Part shown: positions 17,106 to 18,040 of the stretch, piece after piece
How positions within the stretch are numbered: the first letter of the stretch is position 1
Layout: each line of letters starts with the position of its first letter
NCBI RefSeq assembly: GCF_027579695.1
Contig: NC_083583.1
Span: 3,186,542-3,250,541, forward strand
Direction: 5' to 3'
DNA length: 64,000 nucleotides
DNA from: Neoarius graeffei
Lineage: Eukaryota > Chordata > Actinopteri > Siluriformes > Ariidae
The notes under the pieces: model-generated
Told to the model about the DNA's origin: nothing
Database searches by the model: none
The model's input: only the letters and a program-made list of their open reading frames with translations
Made by a program: the position numbers and the translations under genes

Positions 17106-18028
17106 TTGTCCCTCCTTCTGCGCTCCCTCTCAGATGCGGAGAGGCGAGTACGACCCACTTGCATGGGTTCTGGACAGTCACTGAAGGAGGTAGACGGTCT
17201 CCAGGTAGAGGTAGGGAGGCTGGGGGGGCTCAAGGCTTGGTGGCGTTCTCTCATCCTGTTGTCCAGACGAATAGCATGTGAGATGAGGGTTTCGAGGTCA
17301 CTTGGGCATCCAATAGAGGCCAGACCGTCCTTGATGGGGTCAGACAGACCATGGTGGAAGGCTGACACCAGGGCAGTCTCGTTCCATCCACTTACTGCTG
17401 CGAGTGTTCGGAACGAGATGGCGTAATCTGCGACGCTTCCTCCTTGCCGGATGGACATGAGCTTTCGGGCTGCGTCGGTACTGATGTCTGCCTGATCGAA
17501 GACCCGAAGCATCTCTTCAGAAAACAGCTGGAAATCAAAGCACTCAGGTCCCTGTCTTTGCCAGATAGCAGTAGCCCAGGCTCGCGCCTTACCAGCTAAT
17601 AAGGTGATCACAAAGGCAATCTTGCGGCGATCCGTAGTGTAGGTGGTAGGCTGAAGCTCAAAGGTGAGTTGACACTGGGTAAGGAACTCTCGGCACTCAC
17701 TGTGCTTGCCGTCATACCTCTGTGGTGCAGGAAGGCTGGGTTCGCGAGGTGAAGAAGGCAGCATTGCAGGAGGCACTGGAGCAGGAGTGGGAGCTGGATC
17801 AGGAGCAGGAACTGGATCAGGAGCAGGAGATGCAGGCAGAGATGTCAGCTGTGCCAGGGTTTTCCCAATTTGCTGAAGCAGCTCCTCGTGGCGAGCGAGG
17901 GCCTCACGTTGGCTGGTGAGCGTACGTCCATGAGCGTCCATGGTCGCTCCGAAGCGTGTCAAAGCTGCCATAATTCCCTGAAGGTTGGCCGGGTAGACAG
18001 TTGAAGCAGCCTCTGCTGAGTCGGTCAT
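17009..18028 (-). CDS. Chromovirus Gag
   Basis: 339 codons starting ATG at 18028, one base after the primer site, so the leader is almost nil. An N-terminal coiled-coil-like stretch (about 30-70) is followed by a Pro/Ala-rich linker, then a capsid-like region (PQRYDGKHSECREFLTQC to about 250). A CX2CX4HX4C knuckle (CCIYCGKPGHFRASC) is near the end. The last 96 bases overlap pol, which lies in the -1 frame. Gag packages the element RNA. Confidence 0.92.
   Translation of the reverse strand: MTDSAEAASTVYPANLQGIMAALTRFGATMDAHGRTLTSQREALARHEELLQQIGKTLAQLTSLPASPAPDPVPAPDPAPTPAPVPPAMLPSSPREPSLPAPQRYDGKHSECREFLTQCQLTFELQPTTYTTDRRKIAFVITLLAGKARAWATAIWQRQGPECFDFQLFSEEMLRVFDQADISTDAARKLMSIRQGGSVADYAISFRTLAAVSGWNETALVSAFHHGLSDPIKDGLASIGCPSDLETLISHAIRLDNRMRERHQALSPPSLPTSTWRPSTSFSDCPEPMQVGRTRLSASERERRRRDKCCIYCGKPGHFRASCPELLGKGPPRPAEGGL
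17042..17048 (-). promoter_or_regulatory. Programmed -1 frameshift slippery site GGGAAAA
   Basis: In the Gag frame the minus strand reads TTG GGA AAA, which gives the heptamer G GGA AAA of the X XXY YYZ type. A slip back by one base leads into the open pol frame, which begins its homology right there. Mammalian PEG10, a relative, uses GGGAAAC. A downstream stimulatory fold is not tested. Confidence 0.85.
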
Positions 18029-18029
18029 G

Positions 18030-18040
18030 ACGGAGTCTTT
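18030..18040 (-). promoter_or_regulatory. Self-priming primer-binding site
   Basis: Just inside the LTR the minus strand reads AAAGACTCCGT. No tRNA-type TGG start is present. The exact complement, ACGGAGTCTTT, occurs in the LTR at 18324-18334 (and 13502-13512), about 25 bases after a TATA-like box, where the transcript should begin. The RNA 5' end could therefore fold onto this site, as in Tf1 and sushi-ichi. Confidence 0.8.

What the first reader, a model, noticed from the sequence alone, without database searches (positions are those of the whole stretch)
18024..18040. Self-priming signal and RNA start identified by each other
AAAGACTCCGT beside the LTR is the exact complement of ACGGAGTCTTT in R, which lies 24-31 bases after a TATA-like box. 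The two signals independently mark the same base. No tRNA primer site is present, so reverse transcription is predicted to be primed by the RNA's own 5' end, as in Tf1. Gag starts one base after the primer site.
Basis: partly seen in the sequence, partly recalled or inferred. Interest (0 to 1): 0.75.

Follow-up and report, generated by a model that had tools for sequence, protein, structure and literature searches.

The report
Self-priming fish retrotransposon with tRNA-like leader
This is a recently inserted fish jumping gene that very probably starts copying itself with the front end of its own RNA instead of borrowing a transfer RNA; some copies in the same genome show the primer and its landing site changing together.

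Summary
A minus-strand Ty3/gypsy element lies at 13220-18519: two identical 478-bp LTRs, GTCTC target duplication, gag-pol with chromodomain. AAAGACTCCGT (18040-18030), one base after the 5' LTR, is the exact complement of ACGGAGTCTTT (18334-18324), which begins 31 nt after TATTTATA. Self-priming as in Tf1 is well supported. The host genome holds about 4,700 sites like this PBS-gag junction. Of 105 scored copies (123 examined), 87 keep 11 of 11 pairs. Three carry exactly compensating changes on both sides, and the 3' LTRs of the same insertions carry the same variant primer, so the change was present before insertion. A related family has its own primer variant (9-11 pairs in the two copies read). 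The two further helices of Tf1's 'pretzel' can also form. Self-priming is a reported common feature of the Tf1/sushi group, so this is a new member of a known kind. Less ordinary: the LTR end just before the primer site is tRNA-derived (A and B boxes) in an element that encodes its own gag-pol. Transcript start and priming were not measured.

The parts
18042..18519 (-). 5' LTR, 478 bp, TGTTAGG...CCTAACA
   Evidence: identical to the 3' LTR; ends fit the Sushi LTR motifs TGTYANR/CNTNACA printed in PMC3601003 Table 3 (passages)
13220..13697 (-). 3' LTR, 478 bp
18520..18524 (-). target-site duplication GTCTC, upstream copy
13215..13219 (-). target-site duplication GTCTC, downstream copy
18358..18365 (-). 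TATA-like box TATTTATA, -31 to -24 from the predicted start
   Evidence: TATA variants at the same place in diverged copies
18324..18334 (-). self-primer ACGGAGTCTTT, predicted first 11 nt of the RNA (start of R at 18334)
18030..18040 (-). primer-binding site AAAGACTCCGT
18315..18320 (-). CUGUUA (nt 15-20), 5' strand of helix 2
   Evidence: weak by energy (90 of 2000 shuffles as good)
18041..18046 (-). UAACAG (nt 289-294), 3' strand of helix 2 (LTR end plus one base)
18121..18137 (-). GCCUCUGC-AUU-UGAGUC (nt 198-214), 5' strand of helix 3
18009..18022 (-). GACUCAGCAGAGGC (nt 313-326, gag codons 3-7), 3' strand of helix 3
18169..18174 (-). AATAAA polyadenylation signal, so R probably ends shortly downstream
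18055..18112 (-). tRNA-derived stretch in the presumed U5: A box TGGCCTAGTGGG (18110-18099) and B box GGTTCGAATCC (18068-18058)
   Evidence: the related copy L140 matches Rfam tRNA at 17.7 bits, below the gathering score of 29; no tRNA match in the window's own U5
18124..18315 (-). upstream ORF of 63 codons in the leader (AUG at nt 20)
17009..18028 (-). gag ORF, starting MTDSAEAAS
17042..17048 (-). G GGA AAA slippery heptamer in the gag-pol overlap, in the right phase for -1 frameshifting
13710..17129 (-). pol ORF (stop to stop), -1 relative to gag: RT, integrase with Tf2-1-like SH3 and chromodomain
13701..13711 (-). polypurine tract AGAGGGGGGGG, three bases before the 3' LTR

Best explanation
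A young, chromodomain-bearing Ty3/gypsy retrotransposon of the Tf1/sushi kind in a fish genome. Pol II starts at 18334. The first 11 nt of the RNA fold back onto the PBS just past the 5' LTR and are held there by a second helix (nt 15-20 with the LTR end) and a crossing third helix (end of the LTR with gag codons 3-7). RNase H cuts after nt 11, the 11-mer primes minus-strand DNA, and because it stays in the product it also rewrites the PBS in each cycle. Shown: the sequences, the complementarity, its retention across copies, and compensated changes found in the PBS and in both LTRs of the same insertions. Inferred: transcription start, cleavage, priming and rewriting of the PBS.
For: 11-nt exact complement, the same length and cut position as reported for Tf1 (PMC7175516, passage). 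87 of 105 scored copies pair 11 of 11. L127, L167 and L195 have exact double changes at primer nt 9, 3 and 8; the 3' LTRs of these insertions carry the same changed primer, share the 5-bp target duplication (TTGAC, ATAAG, CAAGC) and are 99.6-99.8% identical to the 5' LTRs. Shuffling PBSs among copies reaches three compensated rows in 5 of 20,000 trials; in the gag-anchored sample alone (87 copies, 2 compensated) 54 of 20,000 (copies are related, so these are not strict probabilities). In a related family L136 and L140 read ACTGAGTCTTTT in both LTRs; the PBS of L136 pairs 11 in a row with it and that of L140 9. Helix 3, 14 bp with a 3-nt bulge: 0 of 1500 LTR shuffles and no other place among 862 internal windows; all 14 pairs kept in 100 of 117 copies. 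Pfam SH3_Tf2-1, Chromo and RVT_1 and a -1 slippery site.
Against: 18 of 105 scored copies lack a perfect 11-mer; 7 of the 10 with a changed primer do not match their own PBS. L128 carries ATTGAG in both LTRs against a PBS that calls for ACTGAG; it and L107, L118, L132, L154 and L166, which also fit poorly or lack the primer, were among the 18 loci left out of the score, as were L131, L133 and L136, which fit. L117 mixes two versions. Without pseudoknots, primer:PBS pairing falls to 0.00 in a 509-nt fold and reaches only 0.34 there after helix 3 is set aside, since nt 485-498 compete. The whole leader fold is not unusually stable (z -1.29). By energy helix 2 is weak (90 of 2000 shuffles as good) and helix 3 modest (36 of 2000 LTR shuffles, 96 of 2000 shuffles of the gag side, 66 of 862 internal windows as good). 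No clear compensatory change supports helix 3. No transcript data.
Confidence: 0.9

Rival explanations
1. Reverse transcription is primed by a tRNA (its 3' end or an internal fragment) and the R:PBS complementarity is incidental or serves another purpose.
For: Most LTR elements do this; PMC10886601 (section read) reports PBSs that pair with anticodon loops in fungal Helenus. I had no host tRNA set to compare with the PBS.
Against: No TGG in the first 36 nt after the LTR. With a tRNA template, PBS changes would not track changes in the LTR, yet three copies show that, with the change in both LTRs.
Confidence: 0.04
2. The R:PBS pairing is real but acts as a translation switch or packaging fold, since the PBS ends one base before the gag AUG, and not as the primer.
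For: Geometry of the site; helix 3 lies in gag codons 3-7; a DSAE/DPAE-like motif, chosen after seeing the alignment, lies in the first 16 residues of 48 of 120 listed gag homologues against 0-2 in six later stretches of the same proteins.
Against: Structure alone does not explain an 11-nt limit or how a primer change would reach the PBS in nearly identical copies. A switch role can coexist with priming.
Confidence: 0.05
3. The complementarity is chance.
For: 2 of 5000 shuffles give an 11-nt complement somewhere in the LTR.
Against: Position, retention in 87 of 105 scored copies and compensated copies.
Confidence: 0.01

Closest known systems
Tf1/Tf2 of Schizosaccharomyces pombe
   Same: First 11 bases of the RNA complementary to the PBS, cut between 11 and 12 (PMC7175516, passage); three-helix 'pretzel' (PMC10085805, passage); chromodomain integrase. 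Tj1 of S. japonicus is described likewise (PMC4600332, passages).
   Different: Vertebrate host; gag and pol in two frames with a -1 slippery site; gag has a CCHC motif (CIYCGKPGHFRASC, read), which PMC10085805 says the fission-yeast gags lack; tRNA-derived U5.
sushi-ichi and the vertebrate V-clade of the Tf1/sushi group
   Same: Vertebrate hosts, chromodomain, usual -1 frameshift layout and self-priming as a stated common feature of the group (PMC10085805 and PMC6317226, passages); LTR end motifs of the Sushi clade (PMC3601003, passage).
   Different: I had no sushi-ichi sequence. Butler et al. 2001, which describes the vertebrate members, is not held, so LTR and U5 could not be compared.
Helenus (TRIMp3) and Cassandra
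   Same: tRNA-like (Helenus) or 5S-like (Cassandra) sequence inside the LTR, with boxes A and B in Helenus (PMC10886601: abstract, passages and sections 10 part 1 and 19).
   Different: Those are short non-autonomous elements, Helenus with tRNA primers; this one encodes gag-pol and self-primes. [quoted passage not shown]
HIV-1 tRNA-like element
   Same: tRNA mimicry in the RNA leader of a retroelement (only passages and reference titles of PMC4810235 seen; that it lies near the PBS is recalled).
   Different: There, by a reference title, it facilitates annealing of a tRNA primer; here no tRNA primer is expected.

Membership tests
Tf1/sushi group (self-priming chromoviruses) | Chromodomain at the integrase C-terminus | tested here: met
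   PF00385, E 6.7e-11; SH3_Tf2-1, E 1.5e-21
Tf1/sushi group (self-priming chromoviruses) | PBS complementary to the start of the element's own RNA, not to a tRNA | tested here: met
   11 of 11 here; 87 of 105 scored copies; compensated copies. The start of the RNA itself is predicted, and no tRNA set was compared.
Tf1/sushi group (self-priming chromoviruses) | Three-helix 'pretzel' around the PBS | tested here: inconclusive
   Helices 1-3 can all form by complementarity, but helix 2 is weak by energy, helix 3 shows no covariation and there are no probing data
Tf1/sushi group (self-priming chromoviruses) | -1 frameshift between gag and pol (usual outside fission yeasts) | tested here: met
   pol is in the -1 frame with G GGA AAA in phase in the overlap; frameshifting itself not measured
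Tf1/sushi group (self-priming chromoviruses) | RNase H cut between nt 11 and 12 and priming by the 11-mer | not testable with these tools
   Only the 11-nt limit of complementarity fits
Tf1/sushi group (self-priming chromoviruses) | Position within the group in an RT-integrase tree with named members | not tested
   No named reference sequences on hand; among the 120 RT homologues listed, those shown with an organism bear fish names (fish recalled except one looked up)
Helenus / TRIMp3 | tRNA-like sequence with A and B boxes in the LTR | tested here: met
   A box in 113, B box in 98, both in order in 95 of 117 copies; alignment to a tRNA-derived repeat of the window, 0 of 2000 shuffles as good
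Helenus / TRIMp3 | Short, non-autonomous, tRNA-primed | tested here: not met
   5.3 kb with gag and pol ORFs; no TGG after the LTR

The most novel reading that the evidence does not exclude
The tRNA-derived U5 is a working part: an element lineage that gave up tRNA primers keeps a tRNA mimic in cis, less than 20 bases upstream of the PBS, either to recruit reverse transcriptase or nucleocapsid to the self-primed start or as an internal Pol III promoter giving RNAs that contain the PBS but not the primer. It would be the first such part that I know of in a self-priming retrotransposon with its own gag-pol.
Probability: 0.15. Interest if true: 0.75.

Novelty: new member of a known kind. Interest (0 to 1): 0.45.

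Why it matters
I know of no biochemical demonstration of self-priming in a vertebrate (recalled; Butler et al. 2001 could not be read), so support there rests on predicted complementarity. This genome offers thousands of copies, some of which show primer and PBS moving together, a footprint of the mechanism rather than a resemblance. The same set gives an exact prediction for the RNA start and raises a testable question about the tRNA-derived U5.

Tried and rejected
tRNA gene calls: ARAGORN found nothing in the window or in 11 related loci. The Rfam search found no tRNA match in the window's U5 at E up to 10, but neither did it match, at E up to 1, a tRNA-derived repeat in the window used as a check, so that negative says little; it did match L140 weakly.

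Relatives outside the host genome: RT, gag-alignment and PBS-pattern scans of viral contigs and a gag-alignment scan of genome contigs gave no confirmed relative; the 106 PBS-pattern matches (80 listed) were not followed up and are probably chance. A search for more distant gag families in the host genome (query P0037) did not complete.

A U5 stem-loop like that of retroviruses was considered: the window copy folds into one, but L117 and L118 of the related family fold differently, so it is not claimed. Complementarity between the U5 tail and the post-LTR region: at most 6 nt, which is part of helix 3.

Rows dropped: of 123 loci, 18 were left out of the primer:PBS score (14 without an alignable 5' LTR start, 4 unaligned; named) and 6 out of the helix 3 and box counts. 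Some of the 18 fit my reading (L131, L133, L136) and some do not (L107, L118, L128, L132, L154, L166). Of the 120 gag hits (120 scored of 14,660 candidates), 90 were examined (30 returned as loci, 60 fetched); these top hits favour young, intact copies, and the 8 loci were chosen by an exact PBS.

Full report
What is there. On the minus strand lies an LTR retrotransposon with identical 478-bp LTRs (18042-18519 and 13220-13697) and a GTCTC duplication on both sides. gag (17009-18028) has Retrotrans_gag and Ty3_capsid matches; pieces of pol match RVT_1, the Tf2-1-like integrase SH3 and a chromodomain. pol lies in the -1 frame with G GGA AAA in phase in the overlap. Identical LTRs mean a recent insertion.

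The signal. After the LTR end comes one G, then AAAGACTCCGT, one C and the gag ATG. The 11-mer is the exact complement of ACGGAGTCTTT in the LTR and the pairing does not extend to a twelfth base. In shuffled LTRs an 11-nt complement of the post-LTR region appears in 2 of 5000 trials. TATTTATA lies at -31, but it is one of five near-TATA sites in the LTR sense strand.

Test in other copies. The host genome (2.34 Gb, 38 contigs) has 2343 + 2372 sites within two mismatches of the PBS-gag junction, against 7 + 3 for the reversed pattern. I examined 123 loci: 8 from the exact junction, 25 from a pattern blind to the PBS letters, and 90 of the 120 scored hits of a gag-protein search. 105 could be scored (7, 11 and 87 from the three sources): 87 pair 11 of 11. 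Ten have a changed primer and 15 a changed PBS; four have both, and three of these match exactly (L127, L167, L195). In all three the 3' LTR carries the same changed primer, the same 5-bp target duplication stands at both ends, and the LTR pairs are 99.6-99.8% identical. So the simplest reading is not two later mutations: the change was in R and in the PBS when the copy was made. This is what a primer cut from R and kept in the product would do; a reference title seen in PMC6317226 states that the Tf1 self-primer is not removed. Permuting the PBSs gives three matches in 5 of 20,000 trials; for the gag-anchored copies alone, two of 87, in 54 of 20,000. A related family, with LTRs 81-86% alike over the aligned parts, reads ACTGAGTCTTTT in both LTRs of L136 and L140; the PBS of L136 pairs with 11 of these in a row and that of L140 with 9. 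Against this, seven changed primers are not matched, L128 is unmatched in both LTRs, and L107, L117 and L118 do not fit well. I did not read the 3' LTRs of the seven.

Fold. In 335 nt the primer:PBS pairs reach 0.98, with CUGUUA:UAACAG beside them at up to 0.83, although the fold as a whole is not unusually stable (z -1.29). A third helix joins GCCUCUGC-AUU-UGAGUC near the LTR end to GACUCAGCAGAGGC in gag codons 3-7; it crosses helix 1, so ordinary folding cannot show both. In 509 nt the program picks helix 3 (up to 0.99) and the primer pairing falls to 0.00; it is 0.10 in 700 nt and 0.15 in 1000 nt. With the helix 3 strands set aside it is up to 1.00 in 335, 400 and 700 nt but only 0.34 in 509 nt. 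Counted as pairs, no LTR shuffle (0 of 1500) and no other place among 862 internal windows reaches 14; by energy it is less striking (36 of 2000, 96 of 2000, 66 of 862), and helix 2 is weak (90 of 2000). In 100 of 117 copies all 14 pairs stand, but no clear compensatory change was seen. The layout matches the published description of the Tf1 pretzel (PMC10085805, passage). A gag-start motif like DSAE or DPAE, chosen after seeing the alignment, is in the first 16 residues of 48 of 120 listed homologues against 0-2 in six later stretches, which may reflect helix 3; DNA of those homologues was not available.

The tRNA-derived U5. Between the poly(A) signal and the PBS the LTR carries TGGCCTAGTGGG and GGTTCGAATCC, 30 nt apart. 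It aligns over 61 columns with a tRNA-like repeat of the same window, picked because it too has a B box, at a score that 0 of 2000 shuffles and 0 of 128 other element pieces reach. Both boxes in order stand in 95 of 117 copies. L140, a related copy, matches the Rfam tRNA model at 17.7 bits, E 0.31, below the gathering score of 29. In 30 copies aligned to the window (one, L166, lacks the 5' part), the U5 and the first part of R are nearly constant while the middle of R varies in length and letters. The first TTTT on this strand lies 544 nt past the start of the B box, so a Pol III transcript, if any, would be long. tRNA-like LTRs are known in non-autonomous Helenus elements, and PMC10886601 notes tRNA-like parts in 'not a few' LTRs. 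Paper searches that touch on tRNA-like parts in LTRs or near a PBS; I noticed no paper on this combination in those listings, and the 2001 paper on the vertebrate members is not held.

Judgement. It belongs with the Tf1/sushi group, where self-priming is a stated common feature, hence a new member of a known kind. The added value is natural compensatory variation in a vertebrate genome and the tRNA-derived leader.

Noticed in passing
18055-18112 (-) and the same part of the 3' LTR, 13233-13290 (-): tRNA-derived stretch with A and B boxes that fit the consensus, in the U5 of an element with its own gag-pol.
   Followed up: partly
18124-18315 (-): A 63-codon upstream ORF starts at nt 20 of the leader, at the edge of helix 2, and ends before gag; gag would need leaky scanning or re-initiation.
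   Followed up: no
49781 (-), 58962 (+), 59864 (-): B-box starts: Three tRNA-like SINE heads (GTGGTGTAGTGG...GGTTCGAGCC) in the window.
   Followed up: partly
23290-26485 (-) and 20086-22617 (-): Two non-LTR retrotransposon remnants: RT matches in both and an endonuclease in the first.
   Followed up: partly
20798-21116, 9604-9877, 19765-19966: Long near-perfect inverted repeats (157, 126 and 80 nt arms, 96-98% complementary), like foldback or MITE elements.
   Followed up: no
3896-6390 and 45858-48430: Two copies, 42 kb apart, of a stretch of about 2.5 kb at 81-94% identity per block.
   Followed up: no
L143, L146, L148, L152, L153, L162, L168: Subfamilies of the element carry about 105 extra T-rich bases in the middle of R while the primer and U5 stay nearly the same.
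   Followed up: partly
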